From: a virus
Reading direction: 5' to 3' (one strand)
IMG/VR virus record: IMGVR_UViG_3300045282_000125
Location: 1 to 26,443 of that record
Length of the DNA stretch: 26,443 bases
Of the stretch, positions 8,641 to 23,778 are shown one piece after another (position 1 is the first letter of the stretch; each line of letters starts with the position of its first letter). The notes under the pieces were generated by a model. That model had not been told where the DNA came from, searched no databases, and was given only the letters and a program-made list of their open reading frames with translations. A program made the translations under genes and the position numbers.

Positions 8641-9278
8641 CAGAATACCCTCGACGGCCATGCGGTAGAGACGCCGCCATGCTGTGACCCGCGTGTCCCT
8701 TGCGGAAACGCCCACGACTGGGCGCCCTGCAGGTTCTGGGACTTCGAAGCCATGCGGGCGTCGTTCTGGCCGGCTAGAAACCGCTTCAAATGATACGTTG
8801 CCGTAGTCAAGTCGGTGAAGGACTTGTCTTTTTGCATCATCATCCTGCCCAGAAGACCATCGAGAATGTGCTCGCCATAGACGCGAAGTGTCCAATCTGG
8901 TGCAACCGGGACGTCGTCCATGGTGGTCGGCAGGGTTACGTTCTTGATAACACGCGCGAACCATGTCGTTGTAGGGGTCGTGGTCGGCCTCGTGTATAAA
9001 CGAATGGTGCCAAAATCTTGCATGAACGCAGGGATGATGATCCCCTTATCGTCCCATACACCGACAAGCCGAATGATCTGCCCCTCGACGGGGACGAGAG
9101 CGTAGTTCTGCTCATCCGCAATAGCTTGGAAGACGATATCCTCGGTCCATGCGTTCGTGTAGCTAAAGAACTCCTTGAGAACCGGAAACATCTCGGTTTT
9201 AAGGCCGCGGACGGAGGCACCGGGGAGCTTGATCAGGGCGTTCGCGAGAAATAGCTCGACCTCGTTCTTGTCGATCAT
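8640..9278 (-). CDS. Putative neck / head-tail adaptor protein
   Basis: The product has 212 residues. It starts at ATG 9278 and overlaps the stop of the upstream gene by four bases (ATGA). The N-terminal third is helical (EVELFLANALIKLPG, TEMFPVLKEFFSYTNAW). A beta-rich segment follows (YALVPVEGQIIRLVGVWDDKG, GTIRLYTRP), and then a helical end (LLGRMMMQKDKSFTDLTTATYHLKRFLAG). Together with the 137-residue gene it lies directly after the capsid gene and before tail genes, where podophages encode the connector proteins that dock the tail to the portal. The last 20 residues are low in complexity and may be flexible. The assignment rests on position and general shape. Confidence 0.7.
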   Translation of the reverse strand: MIDKNEVELFLANALIKLPGASVRGLKTEMFPVLKEFFSYTNAWTEDIVFQAIADEQNYALVPVEGQIIRLVGVWDDKGIIIPAFMQDFGTIRLYTRPTTTPTTTWFARVIKNVTLPTTMDDVPVAPDWTLRVYGEHILDGLLGRMMMQKDKSFTDLTTATYHLKRFLAGQNDARMASKSQNLQGAQSWAFPQGTRGSQHGGVSTAWPSRVF

Positions 9279-9688
9279 TGCGAGCTATCCTTCTTCTGCG
9301 GGGTCGGGGTGCCCGCATTAGGCGGCATCGGAGGCTGTCGTACGCCTACCAGCGTATTCTCGAACCGCACCAGGAAGGCGTTCGAACGCGCGTCCTGCAC
9401 GTCCTCCTCGTCGGATAGCAGCGTATGAGCAGCGATCCCGTACACGAACGCCTGCCGGAACTGGCGCTCGATGGGGACCTCTTCGCCTGTGACTTCCTCG
9501 TACGACGGCACCCGCATCCGGCCGCGATGCACGAACAGGTCTGGGCGCAGCCGAAAACCCTCGTCTATGGCCAGATTAAGGCCAACGAGGATCGCAGTGT
9601 CGCTATAGCGGTACGGCTGTACGCGGTCCTGCAACAGCCGCCGGGTGTCGCGGATGTACCCTTCAACTGATCGGAGATTGAGCGCCAT
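9275..9688 (-). CDS. Putative head-tail connector (gp4/DUF6682-like)
   Basis: The product has 137 residues from ATG 9688, with GAGGA five bases upstream. The opening elements (IRDTRRLLQDRVQPYRYSD, ILVGLNLAIDEGFRLRPDLF) match the helical start of small phage connector proteins, in which a long helix with LLQD is followed by Y-R/W-x-D-x-x-L and a R-P-D motif. A later helix (RQFRQAFVYGIAAHTLLSDEE) fits the same fold, and the tail is Pro-rich and probably disordered. These proteins form a ring under the portal after packaging. It is the first gene after the terminator that follows the capsid gene, so it may need its own promoter or read-through. Confidence 0.7.
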   Translation of the reverse strand: MALNLRSVEGYIRDTRRLLQDRVQPYRYSDTAILVGLNLAIDEGFRLRPDLFVHRGRMRVPSYEEVTGEEVPIERQFRQAFVYGIAAHTLLSDEEDVQDARSNAFLVRFENTLVGVRQPPMPPNAGTPTPQKKDSSQ

Positions 9689-9704
9689 CGGCGGTCCTCA
9701 TAAA

Positions 9705-9731
9705 GAAGCCGCCGAGGTATACCCCGGCGGC
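9705..9731 (-). terminator. Stem-loop terminator after the major capsid gene
   Basis: On the minus strand GCCGCCG and CGGCGGC form a seven-base GC stem around a ten-base centre that itself contains the palindrome GGTATACC. The stem is followed by TTCTTTATG. It lies 30 bases past the capsid stop, so it probably ends or attenuates capsid transcription before the neck genes. The T-tract is short, so partial read-through is likely. Confidence 0.65.
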
Positions 9732-9760
9732 CTTTAACACTTGATTAATCACCCCGGTGA

Positions 9761-10771
9761 TTACGAAGCCGGAGTAACCTGGGCTTGCACGAGCGCCTTT
9801 CCATCGACGATCTGATACCCGTAAACCTGCAGGCCACGGAGGATCTGACCGAAGGTAAGCTCCGAGCGCAAAGTCTCCACCTTGCTAATCTGGCTAGCAA
9901 AGGTAAGACCGTGGGCATGCCCAGCGTAGATCGGCCACTCACCAGAAGCGAAGTTCGTGCTATCCGTGCTGTTGTTCGGCAGGAGGTTGGAGATGTACAG
10001 GGTGAACCTGTCCACCATACCGAGACGGCCGTTGCGGAGCATAGTCACCGCGTCGCCAGACAGGTAAGCCTGACGAAGCTCCGACTGCTTGATCATGCGG
10101 CCAGCCCACGCCGGCAGCACGACCCAGCGGCCCTGCTCCGGAATGTTCTGCTCGTCGAGCACCTGCCCCATGCGCAAGAGCACGTCGATAAGCTCGACCT
10201 GTCCAACGCCCGGGTTACGGCCAACGACGGAGAGGGGGGTACCCTTGACGCCGAGGTTGATCGAGCCAGTGATGACGCCGGCAGCGGTGCCCTGATTGGC
10301 AGCCGCCATGCCGTTGACAATGCCGTCCAAGACGTCACGGTCTACGGTAATTTTCAGTTGCTGTGCAGCATCGTCGCTCCACATCGACAGGATGTTCAAG
10401 TCAGACTGAATCTCCATGACGTCGTCAAGGATCAGGCTGAAGTACTTCCCGTTGCCGATATAGAGTTCGAGGTTGCTGCCGGTCGGGCGGTCGAGACCGA
10501 GCAAGCCGTCTGCGTCATAATCATGGATCGCGACGGTCGGCTTGGTGCGGATCTTGACGCGGTCGCCCTTGTTCTTGATCTCGCCTTCGTAGTCAGTATT
10601 CGAGATCGCCGCGAGCACCGTGCTCGCGTAGAACTTCTCGACCAACTTGCCGCTCCAGATTTCCGGAATAAATCCAGTCGCCTGAAGGTTGTTGGAGGTA
10701 GACCCGGTCGGGTAGATCGGAGGCGTAGAGCCGGACGTTGCGCCCGGGAAGCCGGTGCTAGGAATAGCCAT
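9761..10771 (-). CDS. Major capsid protein (HK97-fold type)
   Basis: The product has 336 residues, with AAGGA ten bases upstream of ATG 10771. The sequence has the look of a phage major capsid protein: an N-terminal arm (TSNNLQATGFIPEIWSGKL), an extended region (GDRVKIRTKPTVAIHDYD), the helix rich in Q/D (EIQSDLNILSMWSDDAAQQL), the core (QGRWVVLPAWAGRMIKQ) and a C-terminal A-domain stretch (VETLRSELTFGQILRGLQVYGY). It would assemble the icosahedral shell. It sits directly after the scaffold and before the connectors, the usual head-gene order. A stem-loop lies just before its ribosome-binding site and a terminator just after its stop, suggesting it is expressed as a high-level unit. Confidence 0.9.
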   Translation of the reverse strand: MAIPSTGFPGATSGSTPPIYPTGSTSNNLQATGFIPEIWSGKLVEKFYASTVLAAISNTDYEGEIKNKGDRVKIRTKPTVAIHDYDADGLLGLDRPTGSNLELYIGNGKYFSLILDDVMEIQSDLNILSMWSDDAAQQLKITVDRDVLDGIVNGMAAANQGTAAGVITGSINLGVKGTPLSVVGRNPGVGQVELIDVLLRMGQVLDEQNIPEQGRWVVLPAWAGRMIKQSELRQAYLSGDAVTMLRNGRLGMVDRFTLYISNLLPNNSTDSTNFASGEWPIYAGHAHGLTFASQISKVETLRSELTFGQILRGLQVYGYQIVDGKALVQAQVTPAS

Positions 10772-10792
10772 CTGTAGTCGTCCTTAAGGTGG

Positions 10793-10826
10793 GGCGGCTA
10801 CTGGTTTCTCGTCCTAGTCAGCCGCC
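10793..10826 (-). promoter_or_regulatory. Intercistronic stem-loop between scaffold and capsid genes
   Basis: GGCGGCT pairs with AGCCGCC, and the stem extends inward through ACTGG/CC(T)AGT with small bulges around a loop of about eight bases. The stem starts a few bases past the scaffold stop and ends about 20 bases before the capsid start, just ahead of its ribosome-binding site. There is no T-tract on the minus strand, so it looks more like an RNA-processing or stability element than a terminator. Confidence 0.5.
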
Positions 10827-10829
10827 AAG

Positions 10830-11885
10830 TTACCCTCTGACACGCCCTTCCCGCTGTGCTGCGAAGATCATCTCTTCGTCTCTCTTCTTGTCTGCCTCTC
10901 GCCCCGAGTAATGGGGCGTCTGATTGACAAGCCGATAGAACTCGCGAATCTGGGCGTGCGTGAAAACTGGCTTCTCGGCAGCAACCGCCGTATTGCCGGC
11001 TGCTGGTTTCGGCCTGCCAGGGGCAGTGATCGTCTCCAGGGCGAGTGCAGCTTGACGAGGCGGTTGAACCGGCTCAGCTTGCACTGCCGCGGGCGAGTTA
11101 CCCGTGGCGAGTTCCTCGTTCAGGAACCCTTTGAAGAACGCTGCCACCCGAGGGGCATTGCCGCTTTGGTACGCAGCGATCAGCATCTTCTGACGTACTT
11201 GCCCAGAGTAAACATCTTGTGAACGCGCCCAATTTTTAAATCGCTCGTCGTTGTTGAGTTGGCGCCAGTTCGGCACTTCACGATCCAGCTGCTCGTCCAT
11301 CTGCTGCTTAGCGCTAGACTGGACCTTCTGCGCAACCTGCTGGGTTCGCTGGTTGATCTGAGCCAGATCGGGGGCCACGACTTCACGGGCGGCACGCTGG
11401 ACAAAATCCACAAGCTCCGGCCCGAAAGTCTGGACATCCTGGTCGTTGATAAGTCGAATATCCGGATTCGGCGCCGGCTGCTTCAGATACGAAGGCTGCG
11501 CCGTGGGCTTGCCCTGTGCGATATTCTGCCAGTGCATAAGCTCGTTACTGGTCTCCTGCAGGAGGTGCTGGACTTCTCCAAGAGTCCGCTGAGAGGCACG
11601 GTACCGCCCCTCCATTGCGTAGTATTTGCCCTCCGGGGACGCCGGATCGACACCCTTGCGTTGCTCCGGAGCGGATAGCTCTGGTGCCGGCGGAGCGGGA
11701 GCGGCCTCAGGTTCTGTTACAGGAGCCGGCTCCTGTAACGGCGCTGCCTCTACCGGCGCTTCAGCGGCAGCCGGGGGCTCTTGGGGGTATGCCTGCGCAT
11801 AGGCAGCATCGGCTTTGGCGGCGAGGGCGGCAATAGCGGGGGGGAGCGCCACATTGGTATCAATGGGGGCCATAGCTTCAGCCAT
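10830..11885 (-). CDS. Capsid scaffold protein
   Basis: The product has 351 residues, with AAGGAG six bases upstream of ATG 11885. It is highly charged, with little hydrophobic core. An Ala/Pro/Glu-rich, probably disordered segment lies at residues 25-75, and a long helical and coiled-coil-prone centre spans about 95-215 (SQRTLGEVQHLLQETSNE, INQRTQQVAQKVQSSAKQ). The C-terminus is basic and polar (YRLVNQTPHYSGREADKKR). This composition and the position directly upstream of the major capsid gene are typical of phage scaffolds, which guide shell assembly and leave before packaging. The basic C-terminal region is the expected coat-binding part. No protease domain is visible, so it is probably not a self-cleaving type. 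Confidence 0.8.
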   Translation of the reverse strand: MAEAMAPIDTNVALPPAIAALAAKADAAYAQAYPQEPPAAAEAPVEAAPLQEPAPVTEPEAAPAPPAPELSAPEQRKGVDPASPEGKYYAMEGRYRASQRTLGEVQHLLQETSNELMHWQNIAQGKPTAQPSYLKQPAPNPDIRLINDQDVQTFGPELVDFVQRAAREVVAPDLAQINQRTQQVAQKVQSSAKQQMDEQLDREVPNWRQLNNDERFKNWARSQDVYSGQVRQKMLIAAYQSGNAPRVAAFFKGFLNEELATGNSPAAVQAEPVQPPRQAALALETITAPGRPKPAAGNTAVAAEKPVFTHAQIREFYRLVNQTPHYSGREADKKRDEEMIFAAQREGRVRG

Positions 11886-11895
11886 AACAGTCTCC

Positions 11896-12144
11896 TTACG
11901 GCGCTCGTGGCTTAGGCGACGAGGGCACGGGTTGTAGCCCCGGAATTTCCGAGACCAGTTGCAAAAACTTTTGGGCCTGTTGGGCCCTACCTGCCGCTCG
12001 AAGGATTTCGTCGTTAGGAGCCGCTGTTACCGCGGCGGTAACCCCAAAGACGTACGCATCGAGCGTCCGCATAAAATTTTCATACAGGCGGGGATCGGCT
12101 GCATGAAACTTGTTGAAATACTCGGTAAGCTCCTGTTCCGGCAT
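11896..12144 (-). CDS. Small helical hypothetical protein upstream of scaffold
   Basis: The product has 82 residues from ATG 12144, which overlaps the preceding stop as TGATG. It is mainly helical (EQELTEYFNKFHAADPRLYENF, RAAGRAQQAQKFLQLVSEI) with a Pro-rich end. The stop lies ten bases before the scaffold start, and the scaffold ribosome-binding site falls in that gap. I do not recognise a family. Its place directly before the scaffold suggests a head-assembly accessory. Confidence 0.7.
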   Translation of the reverse strand: MPEQELTEYFNKFHAADPRLYENFMRTLDAYVFGVTAAVTAAPNDEILRAAGRAQQAQKFLQLVSEIPGLQPVPSSPKPRAP

Positions 12145-12362
12145 CAATACCCACTATCCGGCGGCCCCATGGACGGCATCGGAGAAGGCATCTGCGGCTG
12201 GGCCATGGGGGTGGCCTTGGCATAGTCGTTCATCCCGCCCTGCCCACGGGCGAGGCCCTGGACGGCGCTGCGGTTGGGCATGGCCGCCATCTGCGAGCCT
12301 TTGCCTTTGTGGACGGTCATCTGGCCGCCTTTGGTGAGCGGCGTCATGTGCTTCTTGAACAT
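12144..12362 (-). CDS. Small Gly/Met-rich basic protein in coupled mini-gene cluster
   Basis: The product has 72 residues from ATG 12362, overlapping the previous TGA as TGATG. It is unusually rich in methionine (about one residue in seven), glycine and proline, and basic in the first half (MFKKHMTPLTKGGQMTVHKG). The C-terminal half is Pro/Met-rich (PMAQPQMPSPMPSMGPP). It is probably disordered. No family is recognised, and no membrane segment is visible. It sits third of four mini-genes that share start-stop overlaps. Confidence 0.65.
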   Translation of the reverse strand: MFKKHMTPLTKGGQMTVHKGKGSQMAAMPNRSAVQGLARGQGGMNDYAKATPMAQPQMPSPMPSMGPPDSGY

Positions 12363-12556
12363 CAAGTTTCTCCCGTAAGACCGGTGTTGCCCGCCAACGG
12401 GGGCAACTTCGGCTGCTTGCCGTACTGGGTTTGATTCGCCATCGGCTTCACCCGCTGCATGCTGGGAGAAGGCGGGTAAGTGCCGTGCAGGAATTTGGCC
12501 TGAGTAGGCGCGGGAACGCCTTGTGGCCGGTTAGTCCCCGTCTTGACGACAGCCAT
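12362..12556 (-). CDS. Small Pro/Gln-rich protein in coupled mini-gene cluster
   Basis: The product has 64 residues from ATG 12556, sharing its A with the preceding TAA (TAATG). It is rich in Pro, Gln, Thr and Lys (NRPQGVPAPTQAKFLHGTY, QYGKQPKLPPLAGN) and is predicted to be disordered. No domain is recognised. It is translated between two similarly small proteins, and the whole run leads into the scaffold gene, so a head-related accessory role is the best guess. Confidence 0.6.
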   Translation of the reverse strand: MAVVKTGTNRPQGVPAPTQAKFLHGTYPPSPSMQRVKPMANQTQYGKQPKLPPLAGNTGLTGET

Positions 12557-12840
12557 TAGCGCGCCGAGGTGATGCCCGAGCGTGCCGGCTGGGAGCCCGC
12601 AAAACCAAACATGGAGTTGGAGCCGCCCTTGGCGAACTCAGCGCCCTTGCCCGTGCCGCCCGGATCGCCGGTCTGGCCAGACTTCATCGGCTCAGCCTGC
12701 TGCTCGCCAAACATGGAGGTGTTACCCCCCTCGGCGAACGTGGCGTTATGGGTGGATTCGTTGCGGGAAACAGAGCCGGCGCCGGAAAGATCGCCAACGG
12801 ACCCGCTGTCCTTGGCGCCAGACTTAAAACCATTGGCCAT
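12556..12840 (-). CDS. Gly-rich protein with two FAxGGxxSMFG repeats
   Basis: The product has 94 residues and no recognised family. It contains two imperfect repeats of about 24 residues, starting at Phe35 and Phe69: FA(E/K)GG, then SMFG, then P and (K/R)SG. They are joined by a Gly-rich linker (TGDPGGTGKG). The rest is Ser/Gly-rich, polar and probably flexible. The ribosome-binding site AGGAGA lies just before ATG 12840, but it is embedded in the 3' arm of a 38-base stem-loop. Translation of this first mini-gene, and through coupling the next three, may therefore be controlled by that structure. Such short repeat proteins near head genes could be minor virion or decoration proteins (inference). 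Confidence 0.65.
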   Translation of the reverse strand: MANGFKSGAKDSGSVGDLSGAGSVSRNESTHNATFAEGGNTSMFGEQQAEPMKSGQTGDPGGTGKGAEFAKGGSNSMFGFAGSQPARSGITSAR

Positions 12841-12845
12841 AGTAG

Positions 12846-12883
12846 TCTCCTGAATGATGCATCAAATGCATCTAGTCAGGAGA
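12846..12883 (-). promoter_or_regulatory. Stem-loop covering the ribosome-binding site of the mini-gene cluster
   Basis: Two perfect arms are nested: TCTCCTGA with TCAGGAGA (8 pairs), then GATGCAT with ATGCATC (7 pairs) around a three-base loop, separated only by a 2/3-base internal loop. On the minus-strand RNA the 3' arm contains AGGAGA, the only ribosome-binding site for the 94-residue gene starting at 12840. No T-tract follows, so a terminator is unlikely. It lies between the mutase stop and the mini-gene cluster. Confidence 0.65.
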
Positions 12884-12896
12884 TGCTTAATAACTT

Positions 12897-13976
12897 CTAA
12901 CCGGTAATTTTCTTTGCCGCCGTAAGAGCAGCCCCTACAACTTGATCCATGTTGTAGTAGCGATATTCAGCCAGCCGCCCAACAAAGACTATATCATCAG
13001 CACTGCTGAGACGGGCGTATTTCCGGTAAAGCTCGTCACTCTCCGGACACGGCACGGGGTAGGCGGGCTCGTCTTCGGCGCCGGGGTACTCCCAGCTAAT
13101 TGAAGTGCCGGTATGGTCCTGGCCAGTAATATGCCGGAACTCCGTAGTCCGAGTATAATCGACTTCCAGTCCTGGGTACGTGATTAAAGCGACCGGCTGT
13201 CTCAAGCCACTATTCGGAAAATGCTTATGCTCAAACCGAGTAGAACGATATGGCAGAGGACCGAAGCAATGGTGGTAAAATTCATCTATCGGGCCCGTCC
13301 ACACGTCCGGCAAGCGGCCCCGAGTTTTCTCCCATGGATGGTTCAGCACAACCTGGATGTTGGGGTGGTCCAACATCCGTTGAAGCATCTCCGTGAACCC
13401 AAGCAGGGGCTGCGCTTGGTACGTATCAAAGAAGGTACGCTCCTCGTCAGAATAACGAACCGGCACGCGCCGAAGAACGGACGCATCTAGCTCTGAGAGG
13501 TCGCGGCCCCATTGCTTGCGGTTATACCCCCGATAGAACAGATCAGTAAGCCTCGACCCTACAGAACTAAGAGCGACATCTTCACTGGTTTTAATATCCA
13601 TCCCATAATAGTCTTCAGTTTCTGAATCCAAATACCGCCGCATGCATTCTTCGTCTAACTCCATATCGCCGAAAATTCGATTGAAGGTCGTCCGGTTGAT
13701 AGGGAACGGATAGAGAACACCGTCCACGCATGCTTGTACTTTATTCTCGTATAGATGCCACTCCGTGAACTGCGACAGGTAGTCCCAGATCCGCTTGGAG
13801 TTGGTATGAAAAAGGTGCGGGCCGTAGCAATGAATCATAACGCCGTGCGGGTCTAAGCAATCATAGGCGTTTCCAGCAATGTGGGGGCGCTTATCAATCA
13901 CCGTCACCTGCTTACCGGCTTCGGCCAGCTGGCGGGCAACAACACAACCTGCGAAACCGGCACCGACGATCAGCAT
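12897..13976 (-). CDS. glf: UDP-galactopyranose mutase
   Basis: The product has 359 residues from ATG 13976. The 15-codon upstream extension lies in the preceding gene and is rejected. The enzyme is a flavoprotein that converts UDP-galactopyranose to UDP-galactofuranose. Family marks are visible: the FAD-binding IVGAGFAG at the N-terminus, VIDKRPHIAGNAYD, YGPHLFHTNS at 51-60, KQWG after the tyrosine-rich helix, and the C-terminal GRLAEYRYYNMDQVV. Length is slightly short of the usual 365-395 but all key blocks are present. It is the last gene of the sugar cassette and overlaps the upstream HtrL-like gene by seven bases. Its presence strongly suggests that the cassette builds a galactofuranose-containing glycan. 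Confidence 0.92.
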   Translation of the reverse strand: MLIVGAGFAGCVVARQLAEAGKQVTVIDKRPHIAGNAYDCLDPHGVMIHCYGPHLFHTNSKRIWDYLSQFTEWHLYENKVQACVDGVLYPFPINRTTFNRIFGDMELDEECMRRYLDSETEDYYGMDIKTSEDVALSSVGSRLTDLFYRGYNRKQWGRDLSELDASVLRRVPVRYSDEERTFFDTYQAQPLLGFTEMLQRMLDHPNIQVVLNHPWEKTRGRLPDVWTGPIDEFYHHCFGPLPYRSTRFEHKHFPNSGLRQPVALITYPGLEVDYTRTTEFRHITGQDHTGTSISWEYPGAEDEPAYPVPCPESDELYRKYARLSSADDIVFVGRLAEYRYYNMDQVVGAALTAAKKITG

Positions 13977-14656
13977 GGAAAATTGGTCAGTTGAGTATGG
14001 TCGTACTCGGCTTGATACCAATTAATCGGGTACTGCTCCTCAACCATTGACCAGATCGCGAGGTCGAGGGGGATCGCCTTGTACGCACGGATAAACTTTA
14101 TCGCCGTGCTTTTGTAGGCTTCATATAGAGGTCCAACATGAGGCGCTGGCACAACAATAGTCGAGCCACAGAACCGCCAGTTATCGCCATAAGGTTGGAT
14201 CGGCGCCTTTTCGGTAATACCCGGCATATAGACACCTGACGGCTCCCACTCTTCAAGATGGTCGAGAAACGCGGTTACATGCCAAGGCTTAATACGACGC
14301 CCGGTAAAGTCGCCCTGCTTAAGAATCGAATACCCCATCCAGACAAAGACGTCGGAGCTATGGTCTTCTTCCCAAGCCGTATGCATCCACTGCATCGGAG
14401 AATGCTGGATATAATTTGAACGAACATGTTCCAATTCACTGACGAAACGGTCTTCAGCACGAGGGTTGGCGGGGGGATGGGCGTTCCATGTAAAAGTCCA
14501 CGGCAGCCAACACTCTGCGAAAGGAAAGTTACGGAAGATACGTGACCGCCCCTTAGCGGCGGCTTCAAGCTGATTGCCCAACACATGGAAATCGGGCGCG
14601 GGCCGCTTCGTTAGGCCGAGATCGACGTAGGCCGAGACTAATCGAACCTTAGTCAT
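13970..14656 (-). CDS. HtrL/YibB-like protein, probable sugar-transfer enzyme (copy 2)
   Basis: The product has 228 residues from ATG 14656, overlapping the galactosyltransferase stop by eight bases. It is clearly related to the 230-residue protein at 16231-16923. Shared blocks are FVWM-YSI/GI, GDNWRFCGSTIVVP versus PNWRFCGGLMVVP, LYEAYK versus LYKAIK, and the end WYQAEYDHT versus WYQADHNET. The block order is reminiscent of the HtrL/YibB family, a GT-like group of uncertain activity often found in glycan clusters. No signal peptide or membrane segment is seen. Its location between the GT31-like gene and the mutase makes a role in glycan assembly likely. The specific reaction is unknown, and the family call is from memory. 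Confidence 0.65.
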   Translation of the reverse strand: MTKVRLVSAYVDLGLTKRPAPDFHVLGNQLEAAAKGRSRIFRNFPFAECWLPWTFTWNAHPPANPRAEDRFVSELEHVRSNYIQHSPMQWMHTAWEEDHSSDVFVWMGYSILKQGDFTGRRIKPWHVTAFLDHLEEWEPSGVYMPGITEKAPIQPYGDNWRFCGSTIVVPAPHVGPLYEAYKSTAIKFIRAYKAIPLDLAIWSMVEEQYPINWYQAEYDHTQLTNFPC

Positions 14657-15248
14657 TCTTATAGCCCTCAAAGAACTTGTGCATCAACGAGATATCGCCC
14701 TCAAGGTGGGCAGTGATCAAGTCCTTCGGACGGTCCTTCGGCGGGCTGCCGTAGTATCGATTGTCCGCGTCTAGCCCGATCCCAGCGCGGCGAAGATGGT
14801 CCGCCACCCACATGTCGGAGAACCCAGAGGTCGGCTTGGCTTCCGCCAGAACCTTTATTGCAGGCCCTGACACCCAGAATCCGGCGCCGCCGCTTGCATG
14901 TCCCTGATCGCAGCGCAACCCGATATAAGGAGCCCGTGTATAGTCAGACACCAACAACTTGGGCACATTAATGAATGTATCTGTATCAGAATAGAATACA
15001 TTGGTATACCCCTCTTCTCGCGCTTGCTGCATGGCGGCGTGGCACTTGAACGCCACTGCGTCGTAGTGGTCCGGCACCGGGAAATACCAGTTCCCAAACG
15101 AGCCATTAAAACTTAGAGCGCCGCCCAGAACAAAACGATGCGTGATCAGGTGCCCCCACCGATCCAGCCACGTCTCTTCAATGGCGTTTTGGCGGCCGTT
15201 CTCTAGATCACGCTGGCACGACTGTGTTACGACGAGGACTTTAACCAT
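14649..15248 (-). CDS. GT31-like galactosyltransferase
   Basis: The product has 199 residues; ATG 15248 has GGAG eight bases upstream. The motif order fits the galactosyltransferase family 31 (beta-1,3-GalT type): QNAIEETW near the N-terminus (compare R-x-A-I-R-x-T-W), VFYSDTDTFINVPKLL with the metal-binding D-T-D, GGAGFWVSGPAI, and a late DMWVADHLRRAGI (compare E-D-V-x-x-G). It should transfer galactose or a related sugar from a UDP donor onto an acceptor. It has no transmembrane anchor, unlike eukaryotic members, and is short for the family. It overlaps the RmlB-like gene by 22 bases. A UDP-Gal donor would also be the substrate of the mutase in the same operon. Acceptor is not known. Confidence 0.75.
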   Translation of the reverse strand: MVKVLVVTQSCQRDLENGRQNAIEETWLDRWGHLITHRFVLGGALSFNGSFGNWYFPVPDHYDAVAFKCHAAMQQAREEGYTNVFYSDTDTFINVPKLLVSDYTRAPYIGLRCDQGHASGGAGFWVSGPAIKVLAEAKPTSGFSDMWVADHLRRAGIGLDADNRYYGSPPKDRPKDLITAHLEGDISLMHKFFEGYKND

Positions 15249-16246
15249 TCGGGGTGCTCCATTTGCCATCTAACTGTTTCTTGAAGGCGCTCGTGAAAGC
15301 CGCGCGGTGATTTCCAGCCGAAGTCGTGTAGCTTCTGTCCGTTAAGTCCATAGTGACGGTCATGGCCGGGGCGGGCGTTCTGAAAGTCTTCGTACCGCAC
15401 GTCCAGCGGTTTGCCCATATAACCGGCAACCAGCCTCGCCATCTCCATATTACTCACTTGGGCATCGCCGGGGATATTATAACGATCCGGTTTGTCCATC
15501 TTGCCAGGAACGTGCAAATAAGGTTCTGGCCCGCACACCAGGAACAGCAATGCATCGGCGGTGTTCGACGAATGGATGTAAAATCTGGAGCCGTCGTTCT
15601 CCGGAGAACCATGGATTACAACAGGTTCTCCATCGGATACCTTACGCTGCACGATGACGGGAAACTTTTTTGGGCTTTGCATTTCCCCAAAGTTGTTCAT
15701 GAGATTCACTATAACCAACGGCACGTTGTATGCTCTCCAATAGGAGATGGCGATACTTTCTTGAGCGGCTTTCGACGCTGAGTATGGGCTGGACGGCACG
15801 ATGGGGTCCCACTCCTTATGAAGGAACGTCCCATCAGTCGGCCCATAGACCTCGTCAGTTGATACTTGGATAAACACTGATGGTTTCGTAGCGCGTGCAA
15901 ATTCTAGCACATTGAGTATCACCGCTACATTATTCTGCACAAAGGGGACTGGGTTCTCCAGGCTGTCATACACATCGCTCATGCTGGCGAGGTTGAAGAT
16001 ATAATCAATAGAACCAATTTGGCTCATCTCCCGGGGCGAAAACGGCGTTGTCAAATCATGAGTAATAACTTTTACCCGTTGTTTACGTCGATGCTTAGAT
16101 TTCATAACCTCAACAAGCCGAGGAGCTTCTCCCATATGCCTGAAGCTATCAACCAGAACAAAATTCCAAGCCGTATTATCCAGCAAGTACGCGACAACAT
16201 GACAACCAATAGAGCCAGCAGCGCCAGTGATCAGTGCAGTAGGCAT
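15227..16246 (-). CDS. RmlB-like NDP-sugar 4,6-dehydratase / epimerase (extended SDR)
   Basis: The product has 339 residues, with GGAG seven bases upstream of ATG 16246. It is an extended short-chain dehydrogenase/reductase: NAD-binding GAAGSIG at 8-14, the STDEVYG block with T130-D131-E132, the catalytic Y155-x-x-x-K159 (YSASK) and NLMNNFGEMQ. The Thr-Asp-Glu triad and the final RPGHDRHYGLNGQKLHDFGW closely follow dTDP-glucose 4,6-dehydratase (RmlB). I therefore favour dehydration of an NDP-hexose to a 4-keto-6-deoxy sugar, though GDP-mannose or UDP-GlcNAc dehydratase activity is also possible. No RmlA/C/D partners are visible here, so the next steps would rely on the host or genes outside the window. 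It lies in the sugar cassette, overlapping both neighbours. Confidence 0.8.
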   Translation of the reverse strand: MPTALITGAAGSIGCHVVAYLLDNTAWNFVLVDSFRHMGEAPRLVEVMKSKHRRKQRVKVITHDLTTPFSPREMSQIGSIDYIFNLASMSDVYDSLENPVPFVQNNVAVILNVLEFARATKPSVFIQVSTDEVYGPTDGTFLHKEWDPIVPSSPYSASKAAQESIAISYWRAYNVPLVIVNLMNNFGEMQSPKKFPVIVQRKVSDGEPVVIHGSPENDGSRFYIHSSNTADALLFLVCGPEPYLHVPGKMDKPDRYNIPGDAQVSNMEMARLVAGYMGKPLDVRYEDFQNARPGHDRHYGLNGQKLHDFGWKSPRGFHERLQETVRWQMEHPEWLKSSS

Positions 16247-16923
16247 TGAGGGGCTCCATAGTTAGTGAACATTGTTTCGTTGTGGTCGGCTTGGTACCAT
16301 CTCAGCCCCGGAAGGCGCTTCTCGACATTCGCCAATGAGTTCACCTCCCAGGTTATATTTTGAGTGCGCTTGACGTGGTTACCCACTTCCCATTTGATAG
16401 CTTTGTATAGCTTCTCAACTTGGTCACGTGGCACCACCATAAGGCCCCCACAGAACCGCCAGTTCGGCCAGAGGTAGTTCGAGTTCTCCTTGGCGTAATC
16501 CTTCTCCCAGCACCCGGGGATTGCGAAGTCACCGGGGCGTACCCGATCCATAAAGTCTTGAACGACCTCTGCAGTCACCCCTTTAACATGGCCAATACCA
16601 TAGTCCATCCAAACAAATGTCGAGGGGGTCGGATCGAGAATGGCAGCTTTAAGAAGCCAGCCAAACTTCTGGTAATTAGCACAATGGTACGCCAGCGTAT
16701 TCTTGGCCGGATTATCGGCGATGGAAGGAGTTATCTTGAAAGGGGTTTCCATGATTAGTTTGTGCAACCACGTCGATTCCACATGCTCATAGAACGGATG
16801 AATAGTGAAATTCTCACAGTTGAGATTACCAAAGATAATCTCGCCCAACCAGCCATACTCAGCGGCAGATCGGGGGTGATTCGCAATTGGGCAATAACCT
16901 GTGACAAGCTTGATGTCAGACAT
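16231..16923 (-). CDS. HtrL/YibB-like protein, probable sugar-transfer enzyme (copy 1)
   Basis: The product has 230 residues, with AAGGAA eight bases upstream of ATG 16923; the start overlaps the glycosyltransferase stop by eight bases. It is the paralogue of the 228-residue gene at 13970-14656: both carry F-V-W-M, N-W-R-F-C-G, V-V-P, and W-Y-Q-A near the end. In this copy the ITWEVNSLANVEKRLPG segment reads as the family E-N / VE block. It resembles HtrL/YibB-type proteins found beside glycosyltransferases. No transmembrane segment or export signal is visible, so it probably works in the cytoplasm. Activity unknown; the two copies may act on different sugars or sites. Confidence 0.65.
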   Translation of the reverse strand: MSDIKLVTGYCPIANHPRSAAEYGWLGEIIFGNLNCENFTIHPFYEHVESTWLHKLIMETPFKITPSIADNPAKNTLAYHCANYQKFGWLLKAAILDPTPSTFVWMDYGIGHVKGVTAEVVQDFMDRVRPGDFAIPGCWEKDYAKENSNYLWPNWRFCGGLMVVPRDQVEKLYKAIKWEVGNHVKRTQNITWEVNSLANVEKRLPGLRWYQADHNETMFTNYGAPQCLLH

Positions 16924-18925
16924 CCAAGAATTTCCTTACCTCGTCTGCATCCACAATAGCGATACGAGCTTCTTCATCTTTATATCCATACGAGATAATC
17001 AAGATGCCAGAATGGTATGCCATACCGGCGCAAAACTCAATCACACGGTCCTGGAATACGAACGGCAGGGAAAACTTGATAAGCTTGCCAAGCCGGTCGT
17101 ACTGGGCGAACCGGTGGTAATAGTATCGTTTCCACGGCGCCTCCGGCAATCCGCGCGCCTCATGAACAATGGCAAGCCATCCATCGTCCCACGGTATCAG
17201 CTGAGATGACCCACTGATGTGATCGACCGTCGTCCCAGTGGGGTATTCTCGGATCGTTCTACCGTCAGTATCCACCACGACGCCGGGGCGGTACATGAAC
17301 AGGAGTTCTTGGTAGTCTACGAACGGGGCCCAGTTCTTCTCGGTCTGGCGGGGCTCTCGGAGAATACGCTTTATGTTTTTTTGTTGAAGAGTTTGCAAGT
17401 CGTGGCGAGGAGCATACCAACTTTCAAGCTGCGATATAACTTGTTCACAGTTACCGTCAGGATGAAGCTGACGTACTGTAGCCGAGGTCCACAGGTTGCC
17501 GCCCCATGAGAACAACCGTATATCCTCAAACCCCATAACAAGGTTGAATTCGCAGGGTAGATCGGGCGGGGGGACTATCTCACAATACAGCCCTTTTAAA
17601 AACGGGTTCCCCCCTAAATACATAGTAAAATTACGAGTTTTAATCGGGTTCTCAGCGTTCGCCGTCCCATCCGTTGCCTTGATAATGTAGCGCCCGTCTT
17701 GGTCAATGTGGTAATTCACACACCGCACATTGCAGTACAAATCACCAAGATGGTTTGTCACGCTGGGGTTCATCGCCACCCAGCCCTCAGGCGCATCAAA
17801 GGCAATCTTCTGTGACTTAAACGAAGGACACCACTCTGCCAGCGGCTGGATATAATGATAAAGGTTGCACCTCGCTAACTCCCGCGTGCCCCCGTAGTTT
17901 CCCGTCTTCATCGAAAGCTCAGACGCTGCCTTGAACGCCGTCAATCGTTTACCCGGCACATAGAACCCGGCGATGGAGATTTCCTCTTTGGCGCCTACTT
18001 CATGCATATACGTGTTGACGAAGAGACCGTCCTTGGACATCGGCACATGGGCGATGGCTTCTGCAAACGCGAGCGCTGGCGGGTTCATACCTTTCTTGCG
18101 AAAGTAGGTAGCCACCTCCCACATCGGCTCCACGCGCGTCGGCCGCATGTTGTACGCAACCAGCGACTCACGGATAAACCCTTCTTCATTGCCCATGTCA
18201 CGCAGACATAGGGCATGGCAATACTGGGCGTGCCATACCTCTTCGTCCCAGCCGCCCACCTCCACGCGGCGCTTGTACCACTTTATCGCCTTATCAAGCT
18301 GACCGGCATCCCGGTAAGACTGAGCAAGGTAATAGAAGGTACGGCCGTTGTCGGGGTCTTTCTTCAAATCGTCAAGCAATAGTCGAATGTCACGTTTATA
18401 TTTATCGGGCCGATTAGACCCATCGGCATGGTCGATAAAATATGCGACATCGTGGGGCACCTGCGCACTGGCCTCAATATCGAGATACTCATGTGTTGCT
18501 CCACGATAATATCCAGTCGTGTTAACACTAACGATCCGCCGGTTAAGGTAGGAGATACCACCACCATCTTGGTACATGTCCAATGAAGTTGGAGTTGTGA
18601 AGTTGCGGAATGTTACCGCGTCGGTAACAACCAGTTCCATGTCAGCATCGGCGAGGAGGAGGGCGTCATACCCATGTAGTTTAGCCAGTCGTCGGCCCTC
18701 ATCAAGAGCCACATTGCGCGCCTGTGACCACGTCTCAAAGGGAGCGTCCTTGATAGCAAACGGCTTGCCAGCATCTGCAAAAGTTCGTGCGATCACTTCT
18801 TTTGTGTCGTCAACGCTCCCCGTATCGATAACCATCGCGCTTTCAATGTACGGCATATACGACTTGAGTGCTCGCTCGATACGCGCTGCTTCGTTCTTAA
18901 CGATCATATTCAAACAAAGCTTCAT
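16916..18925 (-). CDS. Modular glycosyltransferase: GT2 domain, TPR region, propeller-like C-terminus
   Basis: The product has 669 residues and GGAG five bases upstream of ATG 18925. Residues 1-165 are a GT2-type (GT-A) transferase: LCLNMIVKNEAARIERAL, VIDTGSVDDTKEV (34-37 DTGS) and LLADADM with D93-x-D95. Residues about 174-300 are helical and TPR-like (FYYLAQSYRDAGQLDKAIKWY). Residues about 330-669 contain beta-propeller-like strands (GFEDIRLFSWGGNLWTSA, SGSSQLIPWDDGWLAIVHEA, FCAGMAYHSGILIISYGY) that recall GH130-type or related sugar-binding propellers. It heads the sugar cassette. The TPR part could hold a protein acceptor and the propeller a glycan. The first two assignments are secure, the third is moderate. 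Confidence 0.85.
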   Translation of the reverse strand: MKLCLNMIVKNEAARIERALKSYMPYIESAMVIDTGSVDDTKEVIARTFADAGKPFAIKDAPFETWSQARNVALDEGRRLAKLHGYDALLLADADMELVVTDAVTFRNFTTPTSLDMYQDGGGISYLNRRIVSVNTTGYYRGATHEYLDIEASAQVPHDVAYFIDHADGSNRPDKYKRDIRLLLDDLKKDPDNGRTFYYLAQSYRDAGQLDKAIKWYKRRVEVGGWDEEVWHAQYCHALCLRDMGNEEGFIRESLVAYNMRPTRVEPMWEVATYFRKKGMNPPALAFAEAIAHVPMSKDGLFVNTYMHEVGAKEEISIAGFYVPGKRLTAFKAASELSMKTGNYGGTRELARCNLYHYIQPLAEWCPSFKSQKIAFDAPEGWVAMNPSVTNHLGDLYCNVRCVNYHIDQDGRYIIKATDGTANAENPIKTRNFTMYLGGNPFLKGLYCEIVPPPDLPCEFNLVMGFEDIRLFSWGGNLWTSATVRQLHPDGNCEQVISQLESWYAPRHDLQTLQQKNIKRILREPRQTEKNWAPFVDYQELLFMYRPGVVVDTDGRTIREYPTGTTVDHISGSSQLIPWDDGWLAIVHEARGLPEAPWKRYYYHRFAQYDRLGKLIKFSLPFVFQDRVIEFCAGMAYHSGILIISYGYKDEEARIAIVDADEVRKFLDV

Positions 18926-20499: not shown

Positions 20500-21075
20500 T
20501 TACGGTCCAGTTGACACAACGGGAGTGCCGTTGCGGTTCCATACGTACCCCGTAATGCCAGGATTAGACGTCGGCGCAATAAACAAGGGGAGGAACCGCC
20601 CGGTAGCTCCAGTCGGTCCAGACGCTCCAAAAGCCCCTACGGCACCGGGGAGCCCGGTGGCACCAGTGGGGCCGGTAAATCCGGTCGGGCCAGTGAAGCC
20701 CGTTTTCCCGGTAGTGCCGGTCGAGGGGCCAGTCGGCCCAGTCGGGCCGGTAACGCCCTGCGGAATGCCGGTCGGGCCTAGAACACCTGGGGAGCCGGTC
20801 TGACCAGTATCGCCAGTCTGACCAGTGTAGCCAGTAGCGCCGGTCGGGCCGCGCGGGCCGATTGAGCCTTCAGGGCCAGTGTAGTTACCAGTGGGGCCAG
20901 TATTACCAGTCGCGCCGCCAGGGCCAGTCGGGCCTGCGGGGCCGGCCGAGAGGCCAGTCGGGCCAGTCGGACCAGTATTGCCGCCGCCGATACCAGAGTT
21001 GAGGACGTCAACCACCGCCTTCAAGGTCGGACCAAGCTGGTTGCGGTCGTAATTGGACGAGGACAAAATAGCCAT
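20500..21075 (-). CDS. Short collagen-like protein (first of tandem four)
   Basis: The product has 191 residues. The head ([22 protein letters not shown]) is followed by a Gly-X-Thr shaft of about 130 residues and the cap [19 protein letters not shown]. The ATG follows GAGGA at seven bases. It opens the collagen cluster after the portal block. Head and cap are both shared with the second gene, so these are paralogues of one capped-trimer design. Location on the virion is not known; either capsid decorations or tail fibres are possible. Confidence 0.8.
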
Positions 21076-21129
21076 GTAGCATCCTCAAAGTGTTCGCCGG
21101 AACGCTATCCGGTGGTAGTTACTGGTTTA

Positions 21130-21372
21130 TTAAGCTTCATACATCCGTGCGGTCCAATCGAAAGCACGAACAGCTTCATAGCATTCCTGGCTGCGCCATC
21201 CGCGAATTTCCTGCAAAACAGGATATTGGCGCTGTACCTCCGCGGAAATAGCTTCGTTTTTTAGCCAATTAACTATGACCTCTTGTTGGACCGCAATGCC
21301 CCACTCTTTAAGTTGATAGGGAATTGGGAAAAGGGAACACGCAGGCTCTGAGGGGTACCGGCCAATATCCAT
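21130..21372 (-). CDS. Small hypothetical protein coupled to the portal
   Basis: The product has 80 residues from ATG 21372, sharing its A with the portal stop (TGATG); a GTG at 21375 is the alternative. It looks like a compact helical protein, rich in Trp, Glu and Gln (LKEWGIAVQQEVIVNWLKNE, VLQEIRGWRSQECYEAVRAF). There is no known family I can name. Its coupling to the portal suggests an accessory role in head assembly or portal-ring formation. The 54-base gap after it holds an imperfect stem (CGCCGGA/TCCGGTG) ahead of the collagen cluster. Confidence 0.65.
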   Translation of the reverse strand: MDIGRYPSEPACSLFPIPYQLKEWGIAVQQEVIVNWLKNEAISAEVQRQYPVLQEIRGWRSQECYEAVRAFDWTARMYEA

Positions 21373-23678
21373 CACCCGATCCCCGGGGAAAGTTTCGTAT
21401 TCGGTCCTTGAGCCTGCTGGCCAAACAAATGAGTCTGCGGGGCCATACCGCCGCCCGCCCTATTCGGCGGACGACTACCTTGCCCCACAGCAGCGTCGTG
21501 CTGCGCGCTGCCGCCACCGGTACCCTGAGAGCCGACTTCGCCCTCCTGGCCTTCCGGTGACTGGCCCTGCTGCGGCATCGTGCCCAAGTGGGTCGCGCCG
21601 CCCTCAGGCATCCCCAGCTGCATCGCAAGCTCACCGGCCGTCAGTTCGGTCGTGATCTTCTTGATGCCCTGCTGAACGCCCTCATTAACACCCTTCTCGA
21701 CCATCTCCATCACAGGTCCATGCGCTTGCTGCTGTTCCTGCTGCTTGTGCATTCGCTCAAGCTGGTCATCACTGGGCACTACGTCTTCACCGTTCAAGCC
21801 AATGGTCTGGGAAACGGCCCGCAGCACCTTGCCGCGCCCCGTAATACCCATCAGCTTCATATCCGTGGGGTTCATCGTGGCTTGCAAGAATTCAATCTGG
21901 CGCTGCCGAATCGTCTCTCGCTGGATAGCCACGTTGACACCTAGCACGCTAATCTTCTCTTCTCCTGTAAGGATACCCGTAGTATCTGTCAAGAGAATAA
22001 GGTCCGACAACTGCATAAGCGCCGGCTCGATGATGTCCCGGTCAATATTCGCCGACACCGTCTGCAATATCTTCGAAGCATTACCCATCAGCATAGCAAG
22101 GCCAGACGCCGTACGCCCGGCGCCGCCGCCAGCCGCGCCGCCGCCAACATACTTCGGGATCGCACTGACGTCGTCCGCCATCGACACCCAATGTTCGTAA
22201 ACCTTGATCAGCGTGTCCGCGTTCGAGGTCGGCATGAAGAAGGAGACCGGGGGCTGCGAATTCGCGCCCACAGGATCGTTCCGAATCTTCCACCGTTTCC
22301 AGGGGAACATGTCGTCTTCATTCTCGCCGGGCACCAACCGGCTCGTGTCGATCATAACCTGAGGGCCGGACGAAATAGACAGGTTGTTGATCAGCGCTCG
22401 CGCCGTCGCCGAGAGGGCCTGCTGGATGTCCGCTAAAATGTCCGTCAAAGAATTGCCCACAGGCGAGCCGGGGGTCTTCTCAAAACTAGTCAGAAAATAC
22501 GGGTGACGAGACCGAGGGTTAGGCGTCAGATGCGCCTTGATGACGTGGTTCCCAATGCACCACAACTGGACATGATAGTCACGCAATTCGTCCGGCACCG
22601 CGAGGCCGTAGTCCTGCAATGTCCGTCCCTGCACATTGCCGTTGTACTCGAACATGGTGATCATCGCTGATCGGTTCCATGCCGGGTTCTCGCGGTTTTC
22701 TAGAACCGCCCGCTCCGCATCCGTAGAGTCCCAGCCGTCATACAGGCCGCCACGGCCGTACTCGTCGAGCACCTGTCGAATCGCTTCGGTATCGTACCCC
22801 GGCAGATCGAGGAGATCGTTCAACTCCCCGCGGGTAATCCGCTGTTTCTCAATAATCTCGGCGTTCTCAATGTCGGAGACGCCAGGGGTGAACCAAACAT
22901 CGAATGGGGAGACCCGGTTCCAGGTCAGGGTCGGCTTATGCTCGATGGCCGGTTTCCCGCCCCCCTTGGCCCATGTCACAACCGGTATAACCTTGACCAC
23001 CGGCCCCTTAAGCACACAAAACGGAAACTTGGGAATGTCGAAGAGGCACTCGGCCAAGGCGCCATAGAAGTCGCCGGCACGGAGGATGTCCTCTATTTTG
23101 TCCTCAGACGCACGCGCCTGTTTCGTCGCCTTCTTTTTGGCGGCTTCCTCCGCGCTGTCCATCAACGCTTCTTTGCGGGACTCCAGATCGGAGCCGGAAG
23201 GCTGCTTGCCTAACGTCTGCTGGACCTGGACAGCCTCCTGCTGGATCAACTGGGTAATGGACTGGAGGATTTCGGGGGGGATATCAGGGTTCGACGGCGG
23301 CCGGATGCCCCAAGGACGGTCCTGCGACAGGTAGATATCCCGGAGCAAACTCGATACCGCACGGCATTTCTGAGCAGTGACCCGGGGGTAGATGGTCGAG
23401 CCCCCGAATTTCTGGATCATCATCAAGGTCGTCTGGTCGTACTGCCCATCGAACGTCCGCAAAGACTCCAACAAGCGCTCGCTCCAGCCGGACGCCGTAT
23501 TCCGGTGATTCCGGAAGATCTCGAACCGCCCACGGACGTAACTGCAAAGCGAAGACGGGTCTTGGCCAGGGTCTATCGCCGCTTGGGCTGCAGCTGTAGC
23601 ACGGTCCTGCAGTTGTTGCTCATATTGTGCAGGCGGCACCACATTGAGAACGCCTTGTTGGCCGAGACCATTATCCAT
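21372..23678 (-). CDS. Portal protein
   Basis: The product has 768 residues starting at ATG 23678; an in-frame TGA lies six bases upstream, which fixes the start window. The order of elements fits a large podophage portal: helical N-terminus, clip/wing section with YDQTTLMMIQKFGGSTIYPRV, IPKFPFCVLKGPVVKV, VSPFDVWFTPG, the crown-facing FFMPTSN, and a Gln/Glu-rich helical and disordered tail (LERMHKQQEQQQ, then Gly-rich). It forms the dodecameric DNA gate in the capsid vertex. The ribosome-binding site is weak: AAGGGA lies about 25 bases upstream, separated by a CTCGCGCGAG palindrome. It is preceded by a divergent plus-strand gene island. Confidence 0.88.
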   Translation of the reverse strand: MDNGLGQQGVLNVVPPAQYEQQLQDRATAAAQAAIDPGQDPSSLCSYVRGRFEIFRNHRNTASGWSERLLESLRTFDGQYDQTTLMMIQKFGGSTIYPRVTAQKCRAVSSLLRDIYLSQDRPWGIRPPSNPDIPPEILQSITQLIQQEAVQVQQTLGKQPSGSDLESRKEALMDSAEEAAKKKATKQARASEDKIEDILRAGDFYGALAECLFDIPKFPFCVLKGPVVKVIPVVTWAKGGGKPAIEHKPTLTWNRVSPFDVWFTPGVSDIENAEIIEKQRITRGELNDLLDLPGYDTEAIRQVLDEYGRGGLYDGWDSTDAERAVLENRENPAWNRSAMITMFEYNGNVQGRTLQDYGLAVPDELRDYHVQLWCIGNHVIKAHLTPNPRSRHPYFLTSFEKTPGSPVGNSLTDILADIQQALSATARALINNLSISSGPQVMIDTSRLVPGENEDDMFPWKRWKIRNDPVGANSQPPVSFFMPTSNADTLIKVYEHWVSMADDVSAIPKYVGGGAAGGGAGRTASGLAMLMGNASKILQTVSANIDRDIIEPALMQLSDLILLTDTTGILTGEEKISVLGVNVAIQRETIRQRQIEFLQATMNPTDMKLMGITGRGKVLRAVSQTIGLNGEDVVPSDDQLERMHKQQEQQQAHGPVMEMVEKGVNEGVQQGIKKITTELTAGELAMQLGMPEGGATHLGTMPQQGQSPEGQEGEVGSQGTGGGSAQHDAAVGQGSRPPNRAGGGMAPQTHLFGQQAQGPNTKLSPGIG

Positions 23679-23778
23679 AGATCAACGCTCGCGCGAGAAT
23701 TCCCTTGCGCACACTGCCGGGTTCATATTAATAGTCAATTAATGGGTCTATGCCCATCAATGGGGCTACGAGGTACAA
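23679..23778. promoter_or_regulatory. Divergent intergenic region between portal and plus-strand island
   Basis: This 100-base gap is the only divergent junction in the window and must drive transcription both ways, yet no convincing consensus promoter is visible. A TTGACT at 23733-23738 (minus) could be a -35 box but lacks a good -10. It contains the palindrome CTCGCGCGAG (23688-23697). It also contains three alternating arms ATGGG, CCCAT, ATGGG at 23742-23764, which can form two mutually exclusive short hairpins in front of the gene at 23779. GAGG lies five bases before that gene's ATG. Confidence 0.45.

What the first reader, a model, noticed from the sequence alone, without database searches (positions are those of the whole stretch)
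12846..12883. Two-part hairpin hiding the ribosome-binding site of the mini-gene cluster
Arms TCTCCTGA/TCAGGAGA and GATGCAT/ATGCATC form a near-perfect 15-pair stem whose 3' arm holds the only ribosome-binding site of the 94-residue gene. No T-run follows. Because the next three genes are start-stop coupled to it, one structure could gate all four.
Basis: seen in the sequence. Interest (0 to 1): 0.55.

Follow-up and report, generated by a model that had tools for sequence, protein, structure and literature searches.

The report
Read-through lock on phage structural genes
A hairpin in an uncultivated phage genome hides the ribosome-binding site of a cluster of structural-region genes, and a promoter sitting inside the hairpin probably makes messages that lack half of it, so that only messages started right there would be translated.

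Summary
The hairpin is real (8 + 7 pairs, -19.3 kcal/mol) on the minus-strand mRNA of an uncultivated phage; its 3' arm holds the only Shine-Dalgarno (SD) of the 94-codon gene. Homologous genes in relatives carry hairpins of different sequence at the same place: native arms pair far better than arms swapped between genomes (n=76, z -13.7; 63 unlike representatives, z -11.1), and G.U is tolerated over A.C, as expected of RNA.

In the window it is the best motif match on either strand (18.5; next 18.3). The start would fall in the loop, so local transcripts lack the whole 5' arm (predicted SD openness 0.00 to 0.75) while read-through transcripts stay locked.

This is the logic known for T4 genes e, soc and I-TevI, here in unrelated phages, on a virion operon, and repeated in relatives at the gene after the capsid gene. 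Transcript ends, translation and CtrA binding are untested; some of the nearest relatives do not fit the start-site rule.

The parts
12886..12901 (-). CtrA-box-like direct repeat GTTAGAAGTTATTAAG at the -35 position; overlaps the stop codon of the upstream mutase gene. Its first half-site is degenerate (GTTA instead of TTAA)
   Evidence: motif fitted on relatives' leaders; with the window left out of the matrix, box plus -10 score 18.5, best of either strand, next 18.3
12870..12875 (-). -10 element CTAGAT, inside the 5' side of the hairpin
   Evidence: offset 26-31 of the motif
12863..12863 (-). predicted transcription start, last base of the hairpin loop
   Evidence: offset 38 of the motif, 7 nt after the -10; inferred, not mapped
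12876..12883 (-). outer 5' arm TCTCCTGA, the anti-SD strand, upstream of the predicted start
12866..12872 (-). inner 5' arm GATGCAT, upstream of the predicted start
12856..12862 (-). inner 3' arm ATGCATC
12846..12853 (-). outer 3' arm TCAGGAGA holding SD AGGAG (12847-12851)
12556..12840 (-). g94: 94-codon gene directly under the lock; no PHROG or Pfam match, homologues in many relatives
12362..12556 (-). 64-codon gene, TAATG-coupled to g94
12144..12362 (-). third small gene from ATG 12362 (TGATG overlap), with its own SD GGGAG
11896..12144 (-). fourth small gene from ATG 12144 (TGATG overlap)
12897..14021 (-). codirectional upstream gene, UDP-galactopyranose mutase: a source of read-through transcripts

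Best explanation
A promoter-in-hairpin translational lock at the head of a virion operon. Shown in sequence: a covarying hairpin with the SD in its 3' arm, and a promoter motif (CtrA-box-like direct repeat plus -10) overlapping its 5' arm. Inferred: RNA polymerase starting at this promoter begins in or just after the 5' arm, so its mRNA cannot form the lock and is translated, and the next small genes follow by start-stop coupling. mRNA that reads in from the codirectional cargo genes upstream carries both arms, folds and is silent. Inferred from the motif alone: host CtrA activates the promoter. The result would be that these genes are expressed only when their own promoter fires, however much read-through reaches them.
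For: Arms: native -11.38 against swapped -7.74 (sd 0.27), z -13.7, n=76; 63 representatives under 50% identical, z -11.1, and z -6.6 with the SD core masked; segments further upstream give about zero. RNA level: G.T 28 against A.C 11 in g94 stems, 79 against 41 over three gene starts, 31 against 36 in shuffled leaders. Promoter: box plus -10 in 76 of 83 deduplicated leaders, matrix fitted on the same leaders; best hit of the window when the window is left out; 41 sites against 6 for the reversed pattern in 12 relatives' records. Geometry: the SD complement is centred 5 nt before the predicted start (z -9.3); all SD partners lie before the start in 49 of 64 leaders, shuffles 35.7 sd 3.7, at most 45 in 60 rounds. 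Predicted SD openness 0.17 in read-through and 0.44 in local transcripts, higher in 67 of 76; window 0.00 to 0.75. Upstream ORF codirectional in 70 of 71 leaders, 28 families. Same design at the gene after MCP in relatives.
Against: No transcript end, translation or binding has been measured; the start is set at a fixed offset from the motif. 9 of 64 leaders have no SD partner before the start, among them L005, L006, L011 and L013, which are close to the window by g94 identity (72-81%): their local transcripts would carry the lock. Openness does not rise in 9 of 76 leaders and its mean in local transcripts is only 0.44. L014, L047, L063, L095 and L097 show little SD pairing at all. L178, L179 and L180 have the gene set but no such promoter within the 16-17 kb held. 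In the window the second-best motif site scores nearly as high (18.3), and the three other box sites before genes show no lock-and-release. The scaffold-gene leader also folds somewhat better than shuffles (mean z -1.08), though its SD is paired less than in shuffles.
Confidence: 0.7

Rival explanations
1. The hairpin is on the operon's own mRNA and gates translation directly (ligand, temperature, protein or autoregulation); transcription starts upstream of the 5' arm.
For: L005/L006/L011/L013-type leaders keep the whole hairpin downstream of the predicted start. No start is mapped.
Against: All SD partners lie before the predicted start in 49 of 64 leaders, above every one of 60 shuffle rounds; no conserved loop sequence, arms and loop length (3 to 35) vary freely; no Rfam match.
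Confidence: 0.15
2. The hairpin is an intrinsic terminator of the upstream transcript, with its T-tract in the SD-ATG spacer.
For: 15 of 83 g94 leaders have TTTT between SD and ATG, against 0 to 1 at the starts of the third, fourth, scaffold and MCP genes; some leaders of the gene after MCP look terminator-like.
Against: 68 of 83 have no TTTT, the window among them; the window hairpin is not among the 9 terminator-like sites. It could act in addition in some relatives.
Confidence: 0.06
3. A DNA palindrome: operator for a repressor overlapping the promoter.
For: The inverted repeat lies around the predicted start.
Against: Arm sequences and loop lengths change while pairing is kept, and G.T is tolerated over A.C on the gene strand; the 3' arm is anchored on the SD.
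Confidence: 0.04
4. A chance hairpin in this window, or RNase processing or mRNA-stability element.
For: On the window alone 2 of 200 shuffles fold as well.
Against: Covariation in relatives.
Confidence: 0.05

Closest known systems
T4 genes e, soc, 49 and I-TevI, Aeh1 mobE: RBS-sequestering hairpin with a late promoter in or beside its 5' strand (PMC3014915 section 29 and passages; PMC2988022 passages)
   Same: Long transcripts fold over the SD; transcripts from the promoter beside the gene lack the 5' strand and are translated.
   Different: T4-type late promoter there, CtrA-box-like repeat plus -10 here; here a virion operon head in unrelated phages and, in relatives, a second operon start. 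Experimentally shown in T4, only predicted here.
CtrA-controlled promoters of alphaproteobacterial phages (PMC9437464: outline, abstract, passages, section 21)
   Same: TTAA-N7-TTAA boxes before phage genes.
   Different: There the sites are dense in terminal-repeat or gap regions; the word hairpin does not occur in that paper's main text. Here single boxes at operon starts, coupled to an RNA lock.
IS10/IS50 protection from impinging transcription (recalled; the two papers opened, PMC5006887 and PMC4265352, gave no passage on it)
   Same: Outside transcripts fold over the transposase SD, inside promoter transcripts do not.
   Different: Transposon ends, not a phage operon.

Membership tests
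T4 gene e-type promoter-in-hairpin lock | SD (or AUG) sequestered in a helix in long transcripts | tested here: met
   computed: SD openness 0.00 in the window's read-through RNA; covarying arms
T4 gene e-type promoter-in-hairpin lock | Local promoter whose transcripts lack the 5' strand of the helix | tested here: inconclusive
   predicted start 12863 leaves out both 5' arms; 49 of 64 relatives agree, 9 have no partner before the start; no mapped 5' end
T4 gene e-type promoter-in-hairpin lock | Longer transcripts run in from upstream | tested here: inconclusive
   upstream ORF codirectional in 70 of 71 leaders; transcripts not seen
T4 gene e-type promoter-in-hairpin lock | Local transcripts translated, read-through transcripts not | not testable with these tools
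   needs reporters
CtrA-activated promoter | TTAA-N7-TTAA near -35 with a -10 at fixed spacing | tested here: met
   76 of 83 leaders as a family; the window's first half-site is degenerate, GTTA
CtrA-activated promoter | Host has CtrA | tested here: inconclusive
   host unknown; 68-72% MCP relatives are a Rhizobium phage and two Bradyrhizobium contigs, which lack this promoter
CtrA-activated promoter | CtrA binds and activates | not testable with these tools
   needs gel shift and reporter
Intrinsic terminator | T-run directly after the stem | tested here: not met
   none in the window; TTTT in 15 of 83 leaders
Known Rfam family | Gathering-score match | tested here: not met
   0 matches in the window

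The most novel reading that the evidence does not exclude
A two-key control of virion production: the promoter's -10 region doubles as the anti-SD, so that host CtrA (cell-cycle state) is the only source of translatable mRNA for these structural genes, and the RNA lock makes that gate leak-proof against read-through from swapped-in cargo genes; a lineage of alphaproteobacterial phages uses it at two operon heads.
Probability: 0.35. Interest if true: 0.75.

Novelty: new variant of a known kind. Interest (0 to 1): 0.56.

Why it matters
If true, the T4-style read-through lock arose separately in another phage group, guards virion genes, and is tied to a CtrA-type promoter; it would explain how a structural operon stays silent beside a swappable cargo region. 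It also offers a sequence-only way to place transcription starts in uncultivated phages: the anti-SD strand tends to end just before the start.

Tried and rejected
Rfam: nothing. Sigma-70 scan with TTGACA: one plus-strand match, fewer than shuffles. The fold is the wrong strand. The first SD-pairing null (0.775 against 0.624 shuffled for g94; g73 and g83 no difference, scaffold lower, MCP higher) is weak because shuffled leaders keep the anti-SD pyrimidines; arm swapping replaced it. The exact pattern TTAASNNNTTNTTAA was too strict, 3 of 12 records. Some averages are spoiled by no-hit duplex values; those rows were not used, and searches set such values to 0. The 8-leader g94 alignment A2 is weak: one row misaligned, pairs with both-sided change reached by 38 of 500 shuffles, cells paired by 1, covariation score by 2. 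In A3 the count of further pair types does not exceed shuffles (409 of 500), the other measures do. A portal leader could be checked only in the window and L178. Terminator and DNA-operator readings were set aside as main explanations. Papers: searches (open-licence library only); none listed a paper with this combination.

Rows dropped before counts: 157 loci with a g94 homologue (window and L178 included, some from the same contigs), 153 with a usable start and upstream sequence, 83 after removing leaders over 80% identical, 76 with the box. Gene after MCP: 135 loci, 101 usable, 63 deduplicated, 44 with score over 9, 41 with leader length 14-40. MCP leaders: 85, 75 with the scaffold stop 34-66 nt before the start. 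Upstream ORFs: 71 of 76 leaders. The box matrix was fitted on the same leaders, so 76 of 83 is not independent; only the window's score is leave-one-out. Searches were capped at 80 loci.

Full report
WHAT IS THERE. The window is one 26.4-kb virus record with a structural gene set on the minus strand: portal-like gene (21372-23678), a cargo block with glycosyltransferase-like, epimerase and UDP-galactopyranose mutase genes (12897-18925), four small genes (11896-12840), a scaffold-position gene (10830-11885), major capsid protein (MCP, 9761-10771) and further structural genes. The finding's hairpin lies between the mutase stop and the 94-codon gene (g94). On the mRNA strand it has 8 + 7 pairs, with SD AGGAG in the 3' arm. 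With flanks, 2 of 200 shuffles fold as well, so the window alone gives moderate evidence; the strong evidence is comparative.

RELATIVES. Scans of viral contigs with g94, MCP and a g94 alignment listed 22, 80 and 80 loci (the last two capped, partly the same contigs). 157 loci hold a g94 homologue and 83 leaders remain after deduplication. Windows of 45 nt slid along 57 leaders show one folding peak, -40 to +5 of the start (mean z -1.48), the other windows away from it reaching -0.61 at most. For the last 50 nt before the start the mean z is -1.76 for g94, -2.17 for MCP, -1.08 for the scaffold gene, -0.53 and -0.04 for the fourth and third small genes.

COVARIATION. For each leader I compared the bases before the predicted start with the bases before the ATG, native against swapped between loci: -11.38 against -7.74, sd 0.27, z -13.7, n=76. 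In 63 representatives under 50% identical z is -11.1, and -6.6 with the SD core masked. Segments farther upstream give about zero. In ungapped stems G.T outnumbers A.C 28 to 11 in g94 leaders (p 0.005), 18 to 7 at the gene after MCP (p 0.02), 33 to 23 at MCP (p 0.11), 79 to 41 in all, against 31 to 36 in shuffled leaders. A structure acting as RNA of the gene strand predicts this; a DNA palindrome does not.

PROMOTER. Motif fitting on the leaders gives TTAAC-NNN-TT-N-TTAAC, a TA-rich -10 at offset 26-31 and a purine bump at 38-39, in 76 of 83 leaders. This is the TTAA-N7-TTAA box of CtrA (PMC9437464 passages; PMC3616915 passages give TAA-N7-TTAAC in Sinorhizobium) at the -35 position, which the abstract start of PMC11264516 in a search listing gives as usual for CtrA-activated promoters. 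With the window left out of the matrix its own site (12901) scores 18.5, the top of both strands; the next, before the portal-like gene, scores 18.3. In 12 relatives' records the motif occurs 41 times against 6 for the reversed pattern, and in 10 of the 11 records with hits all hits lie on one strand. The upstream ORF is codirectional in 70 of 71 leaders examined and falls into 28 families: the promoter-hairpin unit stays while the neighbour changes.

HOW IT FITS TOGETHER. The SD complement is centred 5 nt before the predicted start (z -9.3). All SD partners lie before the start in 49 of 64 leaders with at least 3 paired SD bases; shuffles give 35.7, sd 3.7, at most 45 in 60 rounds. Predicted SD openness rises from 0.17 to 0.44 on average, in 67 of 76 leaders; moving the start by -6 to +4 nt gives 0.33 to 0.44. 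In the window it goes from 0.00 to 0.75, because the start falls in the loop and the local transcript loses the hairpin. This is the design documented for T4 genes e, soc, 49 and I-TevI (PMC3014915 section 29; PMC2988022 passages).

A SECOND COPY OF THE DESIGN. In relatives the gene after MCP (window 9275-9688) has the same promoter in 44 of 63 deduplicated leaders. In several of them (L126, L137, L149, L159) the -10 itself is in the 5' arm, the start in or next to the loop and the SD in the 3' arm. Native against swapped z is -7.8, n=41. In six aligned leaders 94.3% of cells pair and 7 cells change on both sides, each above all 500 shuffles, while the count of further pair types is not. In the window this second site shows no lock-and-release (openness 0.38 to 0.22).

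WHAT DOES NOT FIT. Nine of 64 leaders have no SD partner before the start, L005, L006, L011 and L013 among them, although these are close to the window by g94 identity; their local transcripts would carry the lock. Openness does not rise in 9 of 76 leaders. L014, L047, L063, L095 and L097 show little SD pairing. Rhizobium phage RHph_TM3_14A (68% MCP identity) and two Bradyrhizobium contigs (70-72%) have the gene set but no such promoter in the stretches held, and the phage's whole record has 0 pattern matches against 6 control. The host of the clade is therefore unknown and CtrA is an inference from a motif. No transcript end has been mapped.

VERDICT. Observation confirmed; interpretation partly supported. 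Best reading: a read-through lock with an internal CtrA-like promoter (0.7); new variant of a known kind. The step from motif and fold to function is inference throughout.

Noticed in passing
10772-10832, minus strand (between scaffold-position gene and MCP): Conserved three-strand arrangement: strand 1 directly after the scaffold stop codon, strand 2 about 31-15 nt before the MCP start, strand 3 the MCP SD region. Both 1:2 (z -12.7, n=75) and 2:3 (z -12.3, n=85) covary while 1:3 does not, as for a two-state switch; a ribosome ending the scaffold gene would cover strand 1. In the window the 1:2 helix wins.
   Followed up: partly
9688-9748, minus strand; L126:7108-7144, L137:5841-5877, L149:4646-4682: Gene after MCP: in relatives the same promoter-in-hairpin design with very regular stems; in the window an exact TTAA-N7-TTAA repeat at 9734-9748 but no lock-and-release.
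   Followed up: yes
12897-18925: Cargo region between portal-like gene and g94 (mutase, epimerase, glycosyltransferase-like genes); in relatives the ORF before g94 falls into 28 families.
   Followed up: partly
23727-23742 and 21118-21133, minus strand: Further box-plus-minus-10 matches 18.3 and 16.1 before the portal-like gene and gene 20500-21075; no lock-and-release there.
   Followed up: partly
L179 and L180 (Bradyrhizobium contigs of about 60 kb): Bacterial genome contigs of phage size with portal, g94, scaffold, MCP and the gene after it at 70-72% MCP identity: phage, phage-plasmid or prophage in Bradyrhizobium.
   Followed up: partly
11716-11739: Perfect palindrome of two 12-nt arms inside the scaffold-position gene.
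   Followed up: no
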